A stretch of 55,750 nt of DNA from contig NZ_RWKQ01000006.1 of the NCBI RefSeq assembly GCF_003946885.1, positions 59,748 through 115,497 of the forward strand, given 5' to 3'. This document shows, in pieces, positions 1 through 18,061 of this stretch (positions within the stretch are counted from its first letter, which is position 1; every line of letters begins with the position of its first letter). Both the position numbers and the translations under genes were made by a program. The stretch is from Specibacter cremeus. Its GTDB lineage: Bacteria; Actinomycetota; Actinomycetes; Actinomycetales; Micrococcaceae. Below the pieces are notes generated by a model, which saw only the letters and a list, made by a program, of their open reading frames with translations, had not been told where the DNA came from and made no database searches.

Positions 1-978
1 AGGCTCAACCCCCGGGCCGGGCTCAACCGCCGCGGCCGCCAGCCGTTCGACGTAAATCTCGTTCAGACGGCCGGTCAGCCGTTCGGCCAGCCGGCGGGAG
101 TTGGCGAAGATGATCGTTGAATTGTTCGCCAGGACCGCATCGACGATCCTCTCTTCCACATGCGGCCAGATGGACGCGTTGGGCGACAGGCCGGACGCCG
201 GGCCGAGATCGTGCGCCGCGGCCAGTGCGGGCAGTTCGGTCATGTCCTCCACCGGCACCGTGACGGTCAGGTCCCAGTTCTTCGTGGTGGCCGGGGCCAC
301 GATCCGCACCGGGGCGGAGCCGCCCAGGAAGCGGGCCACGGTCTGGTGCGGCTCCACGGTGGCGGACAGGCCGATGCGCTGGGCCGGCGTCTCCAGCAGC
401 GCGTCGAGGCGTTCCAGGGACACGGCGAGGTGGGCGCCGCGCTTCGTGCCGGCCACGGCGTGGACCTCGTCGATGATGACGGTGCGGACGCCGGCCAGGG
501 TTTCGCGCGCCTTCGAGGTGAGCATGAGGAACAGGGACTCGGGGGTCGTGATGAGGATGTCCGGCGGGTGGCTGAGCAGCCGGCGCCGCTCCGCCGCCGG
601 GGTGTCGCCGGAGCGCACGCCGACACTCGGCACGGGGGCGTCCACGCCCAGGCGTTTGGCCGTCTGGGTGATGCCGACCAGGGGCGCGCGCAGGTTGCGT
701 TCCACATCCACGCCGAGCGCCTTCAACGGCGAGATGTACACGACGCTGGTGTGTCCGGGTTCCGGGGGCGCGCCGATCAGCCGGTCCAGCGTCCATAGGA
801 ACGCGGCCAGCGTCTTGCCGGAGCCGGTCGGTGCGATGACCAGCGAATGGGCGCCACCGGCGATTGACGCCCAGGCGCCGGCCTGCACCGGGGTCGGCGC
901 GTCGAAGGCGCCGAGGAACCAGTCTCGCGTCGGGGCGGAAAACTGGCCCAGGGGGTCGGCGGCTGGGTTTGTGGGCAC
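1..978 (-). CDS. Lhr-type DEAD/DEAH-box DNA helicase, N-terminal part (cut by window edge)
   Basis: The visible 326 codons are the first RecA-like domain of a large superfamily 2 helicase and run off the left edge. The Walker A segment reads APTGSGKT near residue 50. The Walker B/DEAH-type box reads IIDEVHAVAGTKRG, followed by motif III LSATV. The DPLGQFSAPTRDWF opening and the RGAHLAVSLERL segment are typical of Lhr (large helicase-related) proteins, which act in DNA repair. I chose the GTG at 978 because homology begins directly after it; an in-frame GTG at 996 is possible. The last visible residues (VEPGPGVEP) come from DNA resembling half a dispersed palindrome found elsewhere in the window. 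Family call is firm; exact start is not. Confidence 0.85.
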   Translation of the reverse strand, partial: MPTNPAADPLGQFSAPTRDWFLGAFDAPTPVQAGAWASIAGGAHSLVIAPTGSGKTLAAFLWTLDRLIGAPPEPGHTSVVYISPLKALGVDVERNLRAPLVGITQTAKRLGVDAPVPSVGVRSGDTPAAERRRLLSHPPDILITTPESLFLMLTSKARETLAGVRTVIIDEVHAVAGTKRGAHLAVSLERLDALLETPAQRIGLSATVEPHQTVARFLGGSAPVRIVAPATTKNWDLTVTVPVEDMTELPALAAAHDLGPASGLSPNASIWPHVEERIVDAVLANNSTIIFANSRRLAERLTGRLNEIYVERLAAAAVEPGPGVEP

Positions 979-1745: not shown

Positions 1746-2372
1746 TTACGGCTGGAACGCCCCGATGGTCAGCAGCTTGATCCCGGTGTTGCTGCATGCC
1801 GTGAGCGGATGGGCGATGTACAACGAATCCGTGGCGCTGGGCGGGTAGACGCGGATTCCGTTGGCCTGCACCCGCGTGCAGTCCTGGTAGTTCCCGGCCT
1901 GGGTGTAGCGCAGCTGGGCCGCAGCACTATTGCCCGGCGCCAGCGTGATGGGACCCTTGGAGGGCAGGCTCGCGTCTCGGTCCGCCGGGGCGCCCAGCGG
2001 ACCTCCCATGCCGGTGAGGACCAGGGAAACCCCCGGGTAGCCGTTGAGGAGGCAGGAGGCCCCGGACGTGTTCTTCACGATCAGCTTGAAATAGATGTGG
2101 CCGGCGGCGCCGCCGCCGGTGTCATCGACGCTGCCGGCCAGGTTCGCCGCCGTGCACAGCGGGGCCGCGGCGGTTCCTGTGGCCGGGCCCGTGCCGGTCG
2201 ACTGGGCGGGCGTCGCGGTCTCCGCCGGAGTCGTCGGGGATTCGGCAGGGACGGTGCCGGTAGAGGTGGTTGTTGCCGTGTTCGACGCCGGCGCGCACCC
2301 GGCCAGCGCGAGGGCGAGCCCCGCGACGAGGATCGAGGCGGTCACTGCGGTCCGGTGGCGGGGGCTGCTCAT
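1746..2372 (-). CDS. secreted lipoprotein with DUF4232 domain
   Basis: A 208-residue protein with a lipoprotein signal peptide: basic start MSSPRHR, hydrophobic core, and lipobox LALAGC with the lipidated Cys at residue 26. A Thr/Pro/Ala-rich linker of about 40 residues follows, then a DUF4232-like domain from about residue 70 (CTAANLAGSV ... NTSGASCLLNGYPGVSLV ... C...C). DUF4232 proteins are common surface lipoproteins of actinobacteria with no known enzymatic role. Four Cys in the domain could form two disulfides outside the membrane. The ATG at 2372 is chosen because it immediately starts the signal peptide; the frame is open further upstream but reads as non-protein. Confidence 0.8.
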   Translation of the reverse strand: MSSPRHRTAVTASILVAGLALALAGCAPASNTATTTSTGTVPAESPTTPAETATPAQSTGTGPATGTAAAPLCTAANLAGSVDDTGGGAAGHIYFKLIVKNTSGASCLLNGYPGVSLVLTGMGGPLGAPADRDASLPSKGPITLAPGNSAAAQLRYTQAGNYQDCTRVQANGIRVYPPSATDSLYIAHPLTACSNTGIKLLTIGAFQP

Positions 2373-2653
2373 GGCTTCACTCTTCCGCGTCCCGGCGGCA
2401 CGCGTCAATTGCGCCACGCCGGGGTTTCCGGAGCTTGCGCCCCGCTGGCCGGAACCGCATGGCGGGGCCATCGTGGCATGCTGGTGGCCCAGTTGGCCAG
2501 GTATGGCACGTCTGGTGGTGATGACCGACGGCGGCCCGCGGGTTGTGTGGGCCGGTGGTCGAGACCATCGAGGCCCCGGGCGAACCGGTCCGTCGCCGTG
2601 CCCCCAGCCGGGGCAGGCCGGGCGTGTCCACGCCGTCGATGCCGTCCGGGAGT

Positions 2654-2717
2654 CCAACCAGGGCGCGGTTAAGCACCAAAACCGGGGGAAACTGGTGCTT
2701 AAGTGCGCCCTGGTTGG
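2654..2717. repeat. 64-nt near-perfect inverted repeat (large hairpin)
   Basis: Two 25-nt arms at 2654-2678 and 2693-2717 match in 23 of 25 positions around a 14-nt G/A-rich loop. The left arm begins CCAACCAGGGCGC and ends TTAAGCACCA. It lies in the 366-nt gap between the divergent start of the DUF4232 gene and the end of the ycnI-like gene, just downstream of the latter, so it could end that transcript, although no clear T-run follows. It may equally be a dispersed intergenic repeat. The rest of the gap (2373-2653) shows no gene; a degenerate GGTGGTCGAGACC fragment lies near 2566. Confidence 0.75.
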
Positions 2718-2738
2718 GCTGCGGGGCGGAGTGCGGGG

Positions 2739-3479
2739 TTATTTGGTGGGTGCAGACTTCCGGGTGCGCAGCAGCGCAGCGGCGCCCAGCACCAGCCCTG
2801 CCAGCCCGGCACCCAGGCCAATCCAGCCCGGGGCCTGGCTGCCGCCGTCGTGCGCGGAATCGGATACGGCCGCGGCGTCAACGGGGGCGGCGCCGTGCCC
2901 GTCATGGCCTCCGGCAACCGCGGCGGTCACGGCCACGCTCGGTGCCGGGGCCTTCATGTCCTCCTCGTTCTGCCCGGCGGCCGGGATGTCCTTCCAATCG
3001 GTCTGCCCCTTCACGCACGACTGCAGGGTCGGGAAATACAGCGTCTTGCCGGCCGCATCGGGCAGTTGGAGGGACAGCACGAACGTGTCGCGCTGGTGCG
3101 GGTCCAGCGGTGTCTTGGCGGTGTACGTGATGGCGCTCGTGCGCTCGGTGATGTAGCTGCCGCCGGCCAGTTTCTTCGGCGCGCCCAGCTTCTCGGTGGT
3201 CTTGGCGATGGTCCAGTTCGGGTTGACCGTCGGGGTGGCGTCGTTGAGTTCCGGCGGCAGCGTGATGGTCAGCTTCGTGGTGGGCGAACCGTCGCAGCCG
3301 TGCGGGACGCTGAACGTCAGCAGGGAGTAGGAGTTCGCGGCGGTCGAATCGGGATTCGCTTCGACGTGGGCCGACGCCGCGCCCAGGCCGACGCCCATCA
3401 GGGCGGCGGTGGCGCCGAGGGCCAAACCGGCCTTCAGCACGCGGGTACGGCGGGACGGGGTGCTTGTTGATGCAGACAT
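2739..3479 (-). CDS. YcnI-like copper-binding protein (DUF1775), membrane-anchored
   Basis: A 246-residue exported protein. A signal peptide ends AASA, so the mature protein starts with His38 (HVEANP). DUF1775/YcnI proteins bind Cu(II) through a mono-histidine brace using this N-terminal His, a nearby Glu and a Trp; H38 and E40 are visible and PNWTIAKT supplies a candidate Trp. The DUF1775 domain spans about 38-185. A His/Asp/Ala-rich linker (GGHDGHGAAP) and a C-terminal membrane segment (about 217-237) ending in basic residues follow. The start has AAAGG upstream. The gene precedes a membrane-protein gene and may act in copper supply or tolerance; no CopC/CopD is visible here. Confidence 0.85.
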   Translation of the reverse strand: MSASTSTPSRRTRVLKAGLALGATAALMGVGLGAASAHVEANPDSTAANSYSLLTFSVPHGCDGSPTTKLTITLPPELNDATPTVNPNWTIAKTTEKLGAPKKLAGGSYITERTSAITYTAKTPLDPHQRDTFVLSLQLPDAAGKTLYFPTLQSCVKGQTDWKDIPAAGQNEEDMKAPAPSVAVTAAVAGGHDGHGAAPVDAAAVSDSAHDGGSQAPGWIGLGAGLAGLVLGAAALLRTRKSAPTK

Positions 3480-3551
3480 GAGGAACCTTTCGGGCGCGTG
3501 GAGGCGCCGCAATCCATGGGTGGGACACCCCGCGGATTGGCCCGGAGGGTG

Positions 3552-12351: not shown

Positions 12352-12718
12352 CTCTTTATCAGTGCGACGAACGGGCGCGAACGTGCGGCCGTCTCGCCGG
12401 GGTCCCGCTGAAGTCGGAGGATTTATGGGGGATGCGCCGGAATAATTGCCAAGGCACGCAGAGACCCGGGATGGGGCGCCGGTGATCTGTAGCCCCTTAC
12501 CAGGGGCATGGGGCACCGTCATTTCACGGCACCGGCCGCAATTGGAATTCTCCACATCGCGGCGTACACGGGGACGTTGAGTTTGAACAAGCCCAACCAT
12601 CGTCCCGTCTGTTTTCCGCCGAATCGCATGGTGAGCGGCGGGGATAATCCGCGCATAGGGGCAATTAAATTGCCGTTGAGTAATTGTTGACCCCTTTTTG
12701 ATGCTTGAGGAGTGTGAA
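12352..12718 (+). other. long structured leader of the cysteine-ladder gene
   Basis: This stretch has no recognisable gene on either strand. It holds a possible six-codon leader peptide (ATG at 12425, stop TAA at 12443-12445, reading MGDAPE) behind a good GGAGGA site. A stable hairpin GCCCCT-TACC-AGGGGC lies at 12492-12507, and further short GC stems occur near 12620-12650. The last 100 nt are AT-rich compared with the genes around it. Whether it is an untranslated leader, a small RNA or simply spacer cannot be settled from sequence alone. Confidence 0.4.
12660..12674. promoter_or_regulatory. 15-bp palindrome GGCAATT-A-AATTGCC
   Basis: A perfect palindrome 44 nt before the start codon of the cysteine-ladder gene, in AT-rich sequence. 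It is a candidate operator for an unknown regulator, or it belongs to a promoter closer to the gene. Confidence 0.4.
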
Positions 12719-14674
12719 ATGGCTGACGAAGCTTTGATCAATGATCTGGCCGGGGCCGCCCAGGCGATAGGTGCCTTCACCCACGAGGATGCCTTTCGAT
12801 CCCTGATCGACGCCTTCCGGGCCGGTGACCGGGACTCCTTCCGGCGTCTGCTGGAAGAGCGCAAGCTCGTGGAACGCTGCGAACTGGTCTGCGAGTGGAT
12901 CCGCAGCAAGGAGTGCGTCCTGCTCTGCTTGGAACTGTGCGGGCCGCCCACCGACATCGAATTGCCGGACCCGCGCGAGTTCGCCGCGGCGCTGGTCCGG
13001 ATCACCCAGGACGAGGAGCTGGTCGAGCGCCTGGCCGCGACGGTCGAACACCGCGACGGTGACGGATTCCGGGCGCTCTTGGCGGAGTTGAAGCTGGAGC
13101 GCTTCTGCCACCTGATCTGCCACTGGGTCTGTACCGTCCGCACCAGGCTGCTGTGCCGCGTGGTCTGTTCCCCGGAGCCCCAGCGGCCGGTGTATCTGGC
13201 CGAAGAGTTGACGGCCCTCGGCGCCGTCCTGGGCCGGCTCTTGGAGAACGAGAAGGCCTTTGCGCAGGCCGTCAAGGCAGCCGAGTCCGGCAACTGCGAG
13301 TTGATGCGCCAGATCCTGGTGCGCAACGACCTGGACCAGAACTGCACGGTGATCTGCGAATGGTTCTGCAGTTGGCGGTGCGTGCGCATCTGTTTCACCC
13401 TCTGCCGGCCATTCCCGATCGAGACGACGGACAACCCGCTCCGCGAGGCCTTCGATTTTGCGCAGGCCGTCTCGAAGCTGGCGGACAACCGGTCCGCACT
13501 GGGCAGACTGGCCGACGCGGTGGCCTCCGGGGACGAGGCGGCCTATGCGGGCCTGGTGGACGAGCTGGGGCTCGCCCGGTTCTGCACCCAGCTGTGCCAC
13601 TGGATTTGTTCATTCCACTGCCGACTGCTCTGCCAGTGCGTGTGCACCCCGGTCCTGCGGCCCTGGTTCACCCACATCGGGCACTTCGACATCTATGCCG
13701 ACATCGATCCGGGAACCGGCCTGACCAACAAGGGGTTGTCGTACTCGGGCTTGAGCAGCAACGGCGGTCCGGGATTCGGCTTCTTCGACTGCCTTGAGCT
13801 GCGCGGATTCTGTCCCGTTGCCTCACCGATCGACGGCACAGCGATGAAGTACCGGTTCCTGATCGCCGGCACCAATGCGCCGATCACCGGCAGCCGGGTC
13901 TGCAACGCGGACGCCGGCACCCGGCTGATTTCGTGGCCGGAGAATCTGGCCGGCGTGGCCGGCGCGGTCAACGTCCCGACGTTCCAGAGCATCTCGATCG
14001 AGGGCAGCCCGGTCCCGGACCCGGTGCCGCCTGCACCGGGGGCCCCGTGGCAGGGACCGAGCAGACACGTCATCGTCCCGGACGCACAGGGCTGGATCGT
14101 GGTGGACCCGGACTCCATCTCCGGCGGGTTCACGACCCTGGTCGGGTACGACACCGGCGTGGACGTGCCCGGCGGGGACCCGTCCGGCGGAATCGTCGCC
14201 GGTGATCCCATTCCGGCGGCGAACCAGAAGGACGGTGCCGATCTTGGCATCATCTTCGAGGCCACCCGGGTGGTCGGTTCGGGGCCGATCGCCGACTTCA
14301 GCAACTCGCTGGCAAAGGTGCACATCAACAATTGGGATGCCATCCGCGCGCTGACCATCCAGCAGTTCCTCGTCGGCCCGTTGCTCGGGTGCACCCCCAT
14401 CAGCACGGCCCTGGACCTGAACTACACCACGGATCACGAACTGATGGCGGACTGGAGCCTCTCGGTCACCAGTTTCTCGTCCTCCGCACCGGGGACCGTG
14501 GTCAGCGGGTCCGGCCCGCGCGGCGCGTCCGCGCACCAGCACATCGACACGAGTACGTGGAATCCATGCTCCTATGTCGTCTCGCTCGTCACCCGGACGT
14601 CCCGCACCACGGGCCTGTTCGACGACGTTGCGCTGACAACGCAGATCACCTTCTGCATCGGGGTGGGCGGCTAG
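12719..14674 (+). CDS. cysteine-ladder repeat protein, unknown function
   Basis: A 651-residue protein of a family I do not recognise. Residues 1-312 contain four repeats of 76-80 residues. Each has an acidic/hydrophobic helical part (pattern F..L...GD...F..LL.E..L) followed by a ladder C-x3-C-x-W-x-C-x3-C-x3-C-x3-C. Ladder Cys are 54, 58, 66, 70, 74 (Arg at 62); 130, 134, 138, 146, 150 (Thr at 142); 209, 213, 217, 221, 225, 229; and 289, 293, 297, 301, 305, 309 (plus 307). The Trp (60, 136, 215, 295) is preceded alternately by Glu and His. The C-terminal 340 residues look beta-rich (GHFDIYADIDPGTG, SISIEG, VIVPDAQGWIVVDPDS) with six scattered Cys. There is no signal peptide or membrane helix, so the Cys should stay reduced; metal binding is inference. 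GAGGAG lies 6 nt before the ATG. Confidence 0.85.
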   Translation: MADEALINDLAGAAQAIGAFTHEDAFRSLIDAFRAGDRDSFRRLLEERKLVERCELVCEWIRSKECVLLCLELCGPPTDIELPDPREFAAALVRITQDEELVERLAATVEHRDGDGFRALLAELKLERFCHLICHWVCTVRTRLLCRVVCSPEPQRPVYLAEELTALGAVLGRLLENEKAFAQAVKAAESGNCELMRQILVRNDLDQNCTVICEWFCSWRCVRICFTLCRPFPIETTDNPLREAFDFAQAVSKLADNRSALGRLADAVASGDEAAYAGLVDELGLARFCTQLCHWICSFHCRLLCQCVCTPVLRPWFTHIGHFDIYADIDPGTGLTNKGLSYSGLSSNGGPGFGFFDCLELRGFCPVASPIDGTAMKYRFLIAGTNAPITGSRVCNADAGTRLISWPENLAGVAGAVNVPTFQSISIEGSPVPDPVPPAPGAPWQGPSRHVIVPDAQGWIVVDPDSISGGFTTLVGYDTGVDVPGGDPSGGIVAGDPIPAANQKDGADLGIIFEATRVVGSGPIADFSNSLAKVHINNWDAIRALTIQQFLVGPLLGCTPISTALDLNYTTDHELMADWSLSVTSFSSSAPGTVVSGSGPRGASAHQHIDTSTWNPCSYVVSLVTRTSRTTGLFDDVALTTQITFCIGVGG

Positions 14675-15909: not shown

Positions 15910-17468
15910 CTAACGTGTACGAATGAGATTCGCACTTGCTCCCCGAACGGTCTTGGGAGCACGCGGCCTGCCGGTTCCCGGTGGGCCCGGGCGGTTCGTG
16001 ACCGCCGGGCGAGCCGGGCCTGTGCAGGCTGCCGCGCCGTCGGGAACCTTGGCAGGCCTGGGACTGGGTCGGCCCGCGCCCGTCCTCTGTCGAGTGCGGG
16101 GTCCGTCCTCCCGTCGCCTGATCCGGTGCCCGAGGGCGCGTCTGCCGATGGCGACGGCGGCGGCCTGGTGGCCCGTCACTGTTGCCTCGGAAGTCTGTTG
16201 GAGGGGCGTCCGCCAGTGCTCGCCGCCCCATCGGGAGGTGTAAGCCGGGTCCACGGCAATGACCCAGATCCCCCGGCTGGCGGCCATCGCGGCCAGCCGG
16301 TCCCGGAATTTCGCGGTGCGGATGCCCGCCACGGTGCGGCGGAACCGTTTCCCGCGACCGCCGGGCACCCGGCGTCCCGGGCGGCATCCAGCAGCGCCGT
16401 GATGGCCGCCCGGAGCCGCCCGTCGCGGGTTTCTGCCGGGAAGCCGGCCAGGGCGAGCGGGATGGAGCGCGGCTCACCCACCGGGTTCCCGGCGGCGTCG
16501 AGGACGCACACGGCCAAGTGGTCGGCGTTCACATCCACGCCCAAAACCCGCCCCTGTTGCAGCGTCTCGACGGCCGGGGCGGGTCCCCCGCCATACCCCC
16601 ACGAGGCATCCACATACCACCGGGCCTTGTCGGGGTCGTGGCTGATGTCGTAGCGCACGCACCGGTTCGCGGACACCCGGTCCCGCCACTGGTCCCCGCG
16701 ATGGGTGAAGGCAGCCGGGGCCGCGAGCGTCAGCCGTGTGCCGAACTCGGCGCACAGGGGCGCGGGGACCTTCAGGGTCAGCTGCCCGTCGCCGTCCACC
16801 CGGATGGTCTCGTTCCCCCACTTCTTCCCGCTCTCGCCGTCGGCGGTGAGGAACATCCGCGCCGCCTCCCACCGCGCCTGCCACTGGGCCAAGCTCAGTC
16901 CCGCCGCCTCGAGGTGGGCTCGGGTGCGCCAGAGCCGGCCGCCGCCGACCGTGATCGAGGGTGCGCCGCGCTCCAGCGCCCGCTCCGCCTCGGCGAGGCA
17001 GGTCCGCAGGGCGGCCAGGCGGCGGGTCTTCTGGTGCCGCTCGGCCCGGGTGCGGTAGCCGCGCACCCCCGCCGCGACCTCACCGGCACGCACCCTCGTG
17101 CGCTTGGTCAGCGCCTCGACGGCCGAGCGCAACGAGGACACCTCGGCGCTCAGGGCGCGCAGCCCCAGCTGGTACTGGTCTTCCACCGCGCGGGTGAGGC
17201 TCCCGGCCCAGCGGGAGGACGAGTGGGCCGTCAGGGCACGCTTGCGCCCGGTCCGCCCGCGCGCGGCGGCCGGGACACGGCCCAGCCGCACCCGGGCGGC
17301 GAGGTCGGCCCGGTACAGGCGCCCGAGGTGCCCGCCGATCGCCCGCAGGGCGGCGGCTTCCTCGCTCGTGGGGTGGATGCGTGTGCGGATGCGCACCCCG
17401 CTGGGGGCGGCCACGACGAAGGGAGCGGCAATGGTCCGCAACTCTCCCTTCCCGCGCTGTACCTTCAC
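15910..17468 (-). pseudogene. tnpB: tnpB, RNA-guided nuclease remnant
   Basis: The first frame (from 17468) runs as a normal actinobacterial IS607-type TnpB, with long helical N-terminal part and RuvC-I motif VLGVDVNADHLAV (Asp312), up to about residue 367 (LLDAARDAGC). The frame then changes near 16370. The homologous tail resumes in another frame at 16368 (GKRFRRTVAGI ... IAVDPAYTSRWG with the RuvC-III Asp) and ends at 15910. The stretch that should hold the RuvC-II Glu (ENLDF-like) between these parts is missing, so a short deletion with frameshift has removed both the second catalytic residue and continuity. The out-of-frame reading stops at 16176. Confidence 0.8.
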
Positions 17469-18061
17469 TGGCCTTTGCCGCCCTCGCCCGCCGCGCCACC
17501 GGCAGCGGCGTCGAGGGCGCGCTTGGCACGGGTGGCCGCCGAGCGGGCCCCGTAGAGGCGTGCGCAGAAGGAGGTGAGGACCTCGGTGACGTCCCGCACC
17601 AGGTCGTCGTCCAGCTCGACGGAATCAATCACCACCAGCCGCCGCCCGGCGGCTTCCAGCGCGGATTCCACCAGCTCGGTGTTCATCCGGCCCAGCCGGT
17701 CACGGTGTTCGACGACGACGGTCGTCACCTCGGGGTCCGCAAGCAGGCGGCGCAGCTTCGGGCGATCCCCGTTCATGCCGGAGGCGACCTCCGCCTCCGC
17801 CCGGACGACCGGGAGCCCTGTCGTCTGAGCCCATGCCCGCAGGCGGGCCGCCTGCCGCTCCAGATCGTCCCTCTGGTCAGGGGAGGACACACGCGCATAC
17901 AGGCCCAACGCCCCCGCAGCGGCGGGTGCGCCGCCAGGTTCGACAATGATCAGCCGGGGACCGACCCGCCGCGCGGGAACAGGCAGCGTGCCCTCCCGGA
18001 ACCACCGATAGGCGGTCTGCGGATGCAGGCCCTGCGAGAGGGCCCAATCCTTCAACTTCAT
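17465..18061 (-). CDS. tnpA: IS607-type serine recombinase (transposase)
   Basis: A 198-residue recombinase with an N-terminal MerR-like helix-turn-helix (KLKDWALSQGLHPQTAYRWFREGTLPVP) followed by the serine-recombinase catalytic domain: LYARVSSPDQRDDLERQ with nucleophile Ser59, then VVEHRDRLGRMNTELVESAL. Having the DNA-binding domain before the catalytic domain is the mark of IS607 TnpA. The C-terminal Ala/Arg-rich end overlaps the tnpB start. No inactivating change is visible. Confidence 0.92.
   Translation of the reverse strand: MKLKDWALSQGLHPQTAYRWFREGTLPVPARRVGPRLIIVEPGGAPAAAGALGLYARVSSPDQRDDLERQAARLRAWAQTTGLPVVRAEAEVASGMNGDRPKLRRLLADPEVTTVVVEHRDRLGRMNTELVESALEAAGRRLVVIDSVELDDDLVRDVTEVLTSFCARLYGARSAATRAKRALDAAAGGAAGEGGKGQ

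What the first reader, a model, noticed from the sequence alone, without database searches (positions are those of the whole stretch)
12719..14674. Four-fold cysteine-ladder protein: possible undescribed metal-binding scaffold
Cysteines recur at exactly every fourth residue for up to six steps (209 to 229 and 289 to 309), in four tandem 76-80-residue repeats, 23 ladder-region Cys in all, each with a Trp between the second and third Cys. Spacing of four puts all thiols on one face of a helix. Cytosolic copper storage proteins (Csp3) use CxxxC helices this way to hold many Cu(I) ions, and the absence of a signal peptide fits reduced thiols. However, the sequence, the Trp, the alternating Glu-Trp/His-Trp and the large beta-rich C-terminus are unlike Csp. 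A new Cu(I), Zn or Fe-S scaffold, or a redox structural protein, is the inference.
Basis: partly seen in the sequence, partly recalled or inferred. Interest (0 to 1): 0.85.

Follow-up and report, generated by a model that had tools for sequence, protein, structure and literature searches.

The report
Rungs of paired cysteines between helices
A previously unclassified bacterial protein carries cysteines at every fourth position of long helices, and the relatives found so far lose these cysteines only in matching pairs across two helices, which suggests that the helices are bolted together by up to six cross-links, either sulfur-sulfur bonds or sulfur-held metal ions.

Summary
Window 12719-14674 encodes a 651-aa protein with four tandem 76-80-aa repeats, each ending in a Cys ladder of period 4, then a beta-rich C-terminus. 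No Pfam, NCBIfam, PHROG, PDB-sequence or Foldseek hit to the ladder region reached E 0.001.

I found 8 members. They have two or four repeats on three unrelated-looking C-termini, and share no neighbour genes between lineages.

The new result is covariation. Number the Cys 1-6 along each ladder helix. Cys i of the odd repeat and Cys 7-i of the even repeat are both present or both absent: 0 half-pairs of 48 in hairpin 1 of 8 proteins. The 13 other registers tried give 6-16. Three different pairs were lost, each completely. This is the connectivity of alpha-hairpinins, extended from two rungs to six, so the ladder helices probably pack antiparallel with thiols facing in pairs.

Strict pair loss favours disulfides. 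Two-thiolate metal rungs are not excluded, and the missing signal peptide argues against disulfides. Csp3 membership is not supported; 'undescribed Cys scaffold' is. Function remains inferred.

The parts
12707..12712 (+). GAGGAG, likely ribosome-binding site
   Evidence: read directly; 6 nt before ATG 12719
12719..14674 (+). Cys-ladder protein, 651 aa
   Evidence: homologues; dN/dS 0.056 in a pair of orthologues
12878..12940 (+). ladder helix 1 (odd), C54,C58,(R62),C66,C70,C74
   Evidence: helix 51-74 in the full-length model
13106..13168 (+). ladder helix 2 (even), C130,C134,C138,(T142),C146,C150; proposed antiparallel partner of helix 1 (Cys i with Cys 7-i; R62 faces T142)
   Evidence: helix 127-150
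13295..13297 (+). C193, accessory Cys present together with C307
   Evidence: both present in hairpin 2 of 6 of 6 four-repeat proteins, both absent in hairpin 1 of 8 of 8
13343..13405 (+). ladder helix 3 (odd), C209 to C229, six Cys
   Evidence: helix 206-228 in the full model, so C229 is at its end; helix 50-73 of the two-repeat model, which includes it
13583..13645 (+). ladder helix 4 (even), C289 to C309, six Cys plus C307
   Evidence: helix 286-309
13655..14671 (+). C-terminal beta-rich region, S/T/N/G-rich, six Cys (C358, C365, C395, C558, C617, C646); C358 and C395 are both missing in L023/L024
   Evidence: (pLDDT under 50)

Best explanation
The N-terminal half is one or two 'Cys-ladder hairpins'. 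Each hairpin is made of two tandem repeats, and each repeat is three short helices followed by a 24-residue ladder helix. Within a hairpin the two ladder helices pack antiparallel as a right-handed coil, so that Cys i of the odd helix meets Cys 7-i of the even helix and forms up to six rungs. Most likely the rungs are disulfides, making a stapled, very stable stalk that carries an exchangeable, secreted-like beta domain (adhesion, coat or binding role) and works in an oxidising place reached without a recognisable signal peptide. SHOWN: the period-4 ladder, its conservation, helix prediction, pairwise presence and absence of Cys in exactly the antiparallel register in 8 proteins, three different C-termini. 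INFERRED: antiparallel packing in space, disulfide chemistry, export, and the scaffold/binding role.
For: Covariation: 0 half-rungs of 48 (hairpin 1, 8 proteins) in the antiparallel register i with 7-i, against 6-16 in the 13 other registers tried; three distinct complete rung losses (odd3/even4 in the window; odd1/even6 in L003, L004, L023, L024; odd6/even1 in L002, L008, L025); permutation P 0.0045, or 0.009 if either orientation counts. The accessory Cys C193 and C307 are present or absent together in 14 of 14 hairpins, and each of the 14 has an even Cys count, 10 or 14. C358/C395 are both missing in L023 and L024, one close pair. Precedent: alpha-hairpinins pair Cys1-Cys4 and Cys2-Cys3 across antiparallel helices (PMC7191063, passages); twin-CX3C proteins have two antiparallel helices with two Cys each (PMC3848088, passages). 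The window-type C-terminus is secreted-like: 34-37% S+T+N+G and about 6% E+K+R in the window, L003 and L023, against means of 22.3 and 15.5% in 95 soluble and 29.1 and 11.2% in 6 secreted-like proteins. Predicted helices.
Against: No signal peptide is seen by eye in 8 of 8 members, and the ladder half is highly charged (20-22% E+K+R in 5 of the 6 members measured, 16% in L002). In straight alpha-helices only two rungs come within disulfide distance; six need a strong right-handed supercoil (7 degrees per residue, curvature radius about 40 A) or a helix nearer four residues per turn. The C-termini of L008 and L025 have 5 Cys each, an odd number. The covariation was noticed in the alignment before it was tested, rests on three independent patterns, and hairpin 2 shows no losses and is uninformative. 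No helper gene is shared between lineages in the neighbourhoods compared; most neighbours were not scanned against families. In the composition control E+K alone did not separate secreted-like (8.4%) from soluble proteins (7.6%).
Confidence: 0.5

Rival explanations
1. The same antiparallel rungs hold soft metal ions, for example two-coordinate Cu(I) (or Hg, Ag, Cd/Zn): a cytosolic metal-thiolate store or buffer that works like Csp3 on a different fold.
For: No signal peptide seen; in MtCsp3 eight Cu(I) sites use a CXXXC motif of one helix and the others use adjacent helices, and its apo form has no disulfides, though apo-BsCsp3 shows one partial one (PMC5171941, passages); a His follows the second Cys of the even ladder in 9 of 10 rows of A5; Cb-Cb under 7 A for all six rungs needs only mild supercoil, 4 degrees per residue.
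Against: Strict loss of exact partners is more than a shared metal core would seem to demand (inference); no Csp family among the hits; no neighbour shared between lineages; secreted-like window-type C-terminus.
Confidence: 0.28
2. A cytosolic redox switch or thiol buffer: rungs close to disulfides only under oxidative stress and open the C-terminal function.
For: Paired thiols with no signal peptide seen; no neighbour shared between lineages, so it may act alone.
Against: Six rungs per hairpin are far more than a switch needs (inference); no regulator or reductase gene is shared between lineages nearby.
Confidence: 0.12
3. The ladder is a substrate for a Cys-modifying enzyme (radical SAM Cxxx-repeat peptides or MNIO), a giant RiPP-like precursor.
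For: Weak NCBIfam hits to Cxxx-repeat rSAM targets TIGR04118 (2 of 10 members, best E 0.022) and TIGR04117 (2 of 10, best E 0.6); in G443 a PF05114 MNIO gene is the divergent neighbour.
Against: PF05114 was found in 1 of the 8 carrier genomes, several of them drafts, and in 0 of 3 non-carriers; the G443 cluster has its own 84-aa ORF with CNPC (coding not tested); no MNIO or radical-SAM protein was recognised by eye among the other carriers' neighbours (not scanned throughout, and G046's contig is 3.75 kb); the hits may reflect the Cys spacing alone.
Confidence: 0.06

Closest known systems
alpha-hairpinins (plant) and twin-CX3C small proteins (mitochondrial)
   Same: Cys spaced i,i+4 in two antiparallel helices; in alpha-hairpinins paired Cys1-Cys4 and Cys2-Cys3 (PMC7191063 and PMC3848088, passages seen)
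   Different: Two rungs there, up to six here; small peptides or about 10 kDa proteins against a unit of about 155 aa with three extra helices per repeat; no such family among Pfam hits; bacterial
Csp3 / Csp1 copper storage proteins
   Same: CXXXC motifs in helices, no signal peptide in Csp3 (PMC5171941, passages)
   Different: No profile match; tandem four-helix repeats; conserved Trp; Cys lost in cross-helix pairs; large C-terminal beta-rich region
Cys-Xaa-Xaa-Xaa repeat radical-SAM target peptides (TIGR04117, TIGR04118)
   Same: Cys every fourth residue (by the family names)
   Different: Only weak hits; here large proteins with folded repeats
Effector-associated domain EAD2 / CATASP helical domains
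   Same: Weak similarity in the helical repeats (EAD2 best E 0.0016 in 1 of 7, CATASP best E 0.0032 in 1 of 7)
   Different: Whole-protein scores below the curated cut-offs; probably generic helix similarity

Membership tests
Csp copper storage proteins | Match to a Csp family profile | tested here: not met
   No Csp family among hits of the whole protein or its halves up to E 1 (Pfam, NCBIfam), of 7 two-repeat units up to E 5 (Pfam) or of 10 units up to E 1 (NCBIfam)
Csp copper storage proteins | CXXXC motifs in helices, all Cys from helices | tested here: inconclusive
   Ladders lie in predicted helices, but the six C-terminal Cys lie in a beta-rich, low-confidence part
Csp copper storage proteins | Fold: Cys-lined four-helix bundle | tested here: inconclusive
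   Foldseek and VIA-align gave no significant match of any kind; coordinates not available
Csp copper storage proteins | Binds many Cu(I) | not testable with these tools
   needs purified protein
alpha-hairpinin / twin-CX3C | CX3C motifs on two helices | tested here: met
   (up to five overlapping CX3C per helix)
alpha-hairpinin / twin-CX3C | Antiparallel outer-outer and inner-inner Cys pairing | tested here: inconclusive
   Supported by covariation (0 of 48 half-rungs), not measured in a structure
alpha-hairpinin / twin-CX3C | Small helix-loop-helix protein of that sequence family | tested here: not met
   651 aa, four-helix repeats; no such family among Pfam hits
Cxxx-repeat rSAM targets (TIGR04117/TIGR04118) | Score over the curated cut-off | tested here: not met
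   TIGR04117: 9.9 bits against cut-off 50 for the window unit. TIGR04118: not a hit of the window unit; best E 0.022 in 2 of 10 members, cut-off not shown
MNIO (PF05114) substrate | MNIO gene in the genome and linked | tested here: not met
   None in the window's genome; 1 of 8 carriers has a PF05114 gene

The most novel reading that the evidence does not exclude
A new structural class: a right-handed antiparallel helical hairpin whose interface is one continuous row of six cross-helix thiol pairs, twelve in a four-repeat protein. It would be either an alpha-helical cystine ladder or a chain of S-metal-S rungs running along a protein rod, used as an exchangeable bacterial stalk domain.
Probability: 0.35. 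Interest if true: 0.8.

Novelty: new variant of a known kind. Interest (0 to 1): 0.62.

Why it matters
If the rungs are real, two alpha-helices can be cross-linked or metallated at every fourth residue over six rungs, three times the two-rung hairpin of alpha-hairpinins. That would be a natural design for very stable helical rods, or for a line of metal-thiolate sites. It also gives a clear two-way test (disulfide or metal) in a family that no library used here describes, and a case of a disulfide-like pattern in a bacterial protein without a recognisable export signal.

Tried and rejected

Mobile-element idea: the window protein and the L008 protein have no match in 72,556 plasmid records or 50,697 phage records, the L002 protein none in plasmids; scans of viral contigs with A1, A5 and the L008 protein found none. 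G1068's copy lies within 5 kb of an IS4/5-type transposase fragment. Dropped as an explanation.

Copper-locus idea: window 2739-3512 holds a DUF1775 gene, but about 9 kb away. The BLAST comparison of neighbours began at window base 3001 and so held only part of that gene; it showed no relative beside other carriers.

MNIO idea: a PF05114 gene is the divergent neighbour in G443 only; demoted.

Shared regulatory site: upstream regions of 8 members showed no common inverted repeat by eye.

Homology of the three C-termini: hhalign probabilities under 2%; not shown.

Scripts discarded: automatic register assignment was wrong (ladders missed or shifted), with starts fixed from alignment A5, replaces them. 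From I use only C-terminal Cys counts. One search had a wrong helix phase; one search replaces it. In A2 the first row begins with M for a GTG codon; A3 and A5 avoid this.

Literature, listings only: cysteine ladder/CXXXC (25 of 127 papers listed), Cxxx repeats (79, 6 of 6), alpha-hairpinin/CX3C (97, 12 of 101), disulfide/cystine ladder (109, 15 of 40; mostly defensin and peptide titles, none opened), every-fourth-residue cysteine-rich helices (no paper), actinobacterial Cys-rich repeat families (111, 5 of 5). No listed title names this family; nothing wider is claimed.

Full report
OBSERVATION. The ORF at window 12719-14674 is real: 651 aa, ATG with GAGGAG upstream. Residues 1-312 hold 24 Cys, with 16 pairs at i+4; 20,000 shuffles gave a mean of 1.76 and a maximum of 9.

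FAMILY. Nothing at E 0.001 or better in Pfam, NCBIfam, PHROGs or PDB sequences for the ladder region. With the window that is 8 carriers. Tallies, own or centre genomes included and overlapping between searches: 2 of 58 relatives, 2 of 396 of the order, 2 of 394 of the class (24), 1 of 296 of the phylum, 1 of 3 (39), 1 of 2 (40), 5 of 186 of the Humibacillus family (41), 1 of 3 (61), 0 of 36 of another class (77). At most 5 to 20 first-look candidates per genome were scored in the large searches, so misses are possible. The scan of genome contigs, which spans bacteria and archaea, used exact peptide words of the window protein and found only the Humibacillus pair, so the reach outside this phylum is barely tested. 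No plasmid, phage or viral-contig match in the searches made. Neighbours are shared only within the two close pairs (L003/L004 and L023/L024) apart from a few broad-family hits; G046's contig is too short to tell.

ARCHITECTURE. Six members have four repeats and two (L008, L025) have two. Three C-termini occur: the window type, shared with L003, L004, L023, L024; the L008/L025 type; and the L002 type. Profile comparison does not relate them. A tree of 14 hairpins with Cys masked puts the six second hairpins together (99/97), which fits one hairpin duplication before the four-repeat proteins diverged; other deep forks are weak, and the program warns of long branches, L002 and W_hp2 among them. 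Both halves are under purifying selection (dN/dS 0.058 and 0.054 in the Humibacillus pair; 0.26 in the L023/L024 pair). No signal peptide is seen by eye; the most hydrophobic 19-residue stretch scores 1.18-1.28 in 7 of 8 members and 1.96 in L002, inside its second repeat.

STRUCTURE. A two-repeat unit (window 157-313, alignment A3 of 6 rows from window, L003, L004) is predicted with mean pLDDT 91 and pTM 0.82: three short helices and one 24-residue helix per repeat, with the six Cys of each ladder inside helices 50-73 and 130-153. The full model has block means of 70-94 over residues 11-310 and under 50 over most of 311-651. No solved or viral fold matches significantly. Coordinates could not be read here.

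KEY RESULT. I noticed in alignment A5 that Cys losses come in pairs and then tested it with ladder starts fixed from the alignment. Pairing Cys i of the odd helix with Cys 7-i of the even helix gives 0 half-pairs of 48 in hairpin 1 of 8 proteins. Six other antiparallel offsets give 8-9 of 24-40, seven parallel ones 6-16 of 24-48. Three distinct rungs were lost, each on both sides: window odd3/even4 (R62/T142); L003, L004, L023, L024 odd1/even6; L002, L008, L025 odd6/even1. Treating these as three events, random placement gives P 0.0045 (0.009 if either orientation counts); the eight proteins are not independent and the test is post hoc. Hairpin 2 is intact in all six and says nothing about rungs. 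But C193 and C307 are both present in hairpin 2 of 6 of 6 and both absent in hairpin 1 of 8 of 8, and each of the 14 hairpins has an even Cys number. In the C-terminus C358 and C395 are both missing in L023 and L024.

MECHANISM. Two antiparallel helices with Cys1-Cys4 and Cys2-Cys3 disulfides are the pattern of alpha-hairpinins (PMC7191063, passages); twin-CX3C proteins share the two antiparallel helices (PMC3848088, passages). Here there would be up to six rungs. A simple two-helix geometry (inference) says straight alpha-helices allow two rungs at disulfide distance (Cb-Cb under 4.7 A) and four at metal distance (under 7 A). A right-handed supercoil of 4 degrees per residue brings all six within metal distance, 7 degrees within disulfide distance (curvature radius about 40 A, tight); a helix of four residues per turn would need none. 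So geometry leans to metal, strict pair loss leans to disulfide. Csp3 shows that many CXXXC thiols can stay reduced and bind Cu(I) (PMC5171941, passages; PMC10155185, passages). Composition: the window-type C-terminus is rich in S, T, N, G and poor in charge, while the ladder half is highly charged (16-22% E+K+R in the six members measured). The L008, L025 and L002 C-termini have 29-34% S+T+N+G and 7-11% E+K+R. The comparison used 95 soluble proteins (the ladder proteins themselves not removed) and only 6 secreted-like ones picked by simple rules, and E+K alone did not separate the two sets. I commit to disulfide rungs at 0.5, metal rungs at 0.28.

NEIGHBOURS AND RIVALS. G443 has a PF05114 MNIO gene divergent from its ladder gene, but none was found in the seven other carriers and the cluster contains its own 84-aa ORF. 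Weak hits to Cxxx-repeat radical-SAM targets and to EAD2, CATASP and Ddi2_HDD are reported but not taken as membership. Of 8 neighbour proteins of L023-L026 scanned with Pfam, hits were a PAS/histidine kinase, an M20 peptidase, an IS4/5 transposase piece and a SHOCT domain; 4 had none.

VERDICT. It is a new family in the libraries searched, and the paired-rung pattern is the part that would surprise a specialist; what the rungs are made of and what the protein does remain to be tested.

Noticed in passing
L008:411-2142 (genome G443): Compact minus-strand cluster: 84-aa ORF with a CNPC motif, a PF05114 MNIO gene and a 179-aa ORF without a Pfam match; looks like a small MNIO peptide-modification cluster.
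   Followed up: partly
window 16176-18061: Two overlapping minus-strand ORFs about 1.5 kb downstream of the ladder gene: 17465-18061 matches Resolvase PF00239 and looks by eye IS607-like; 16176-17468 looks by eye TnpB-like but has no Pfam hit at E 0.001.
   Followed up: partly
window 1746-3512: DUF4232 and DUF1775 (PF07987) genes next to each other on the minus strand.
   Followed up: no
L023:14323-15657 and L024:11116-12474: In G1187 and G1194 related genes (85% identical, M20 peptidase in L024) lie 3.6 and 0.4 kb downstream of the ladder gene, while the nearer flanks differ.
   Followed up: partly
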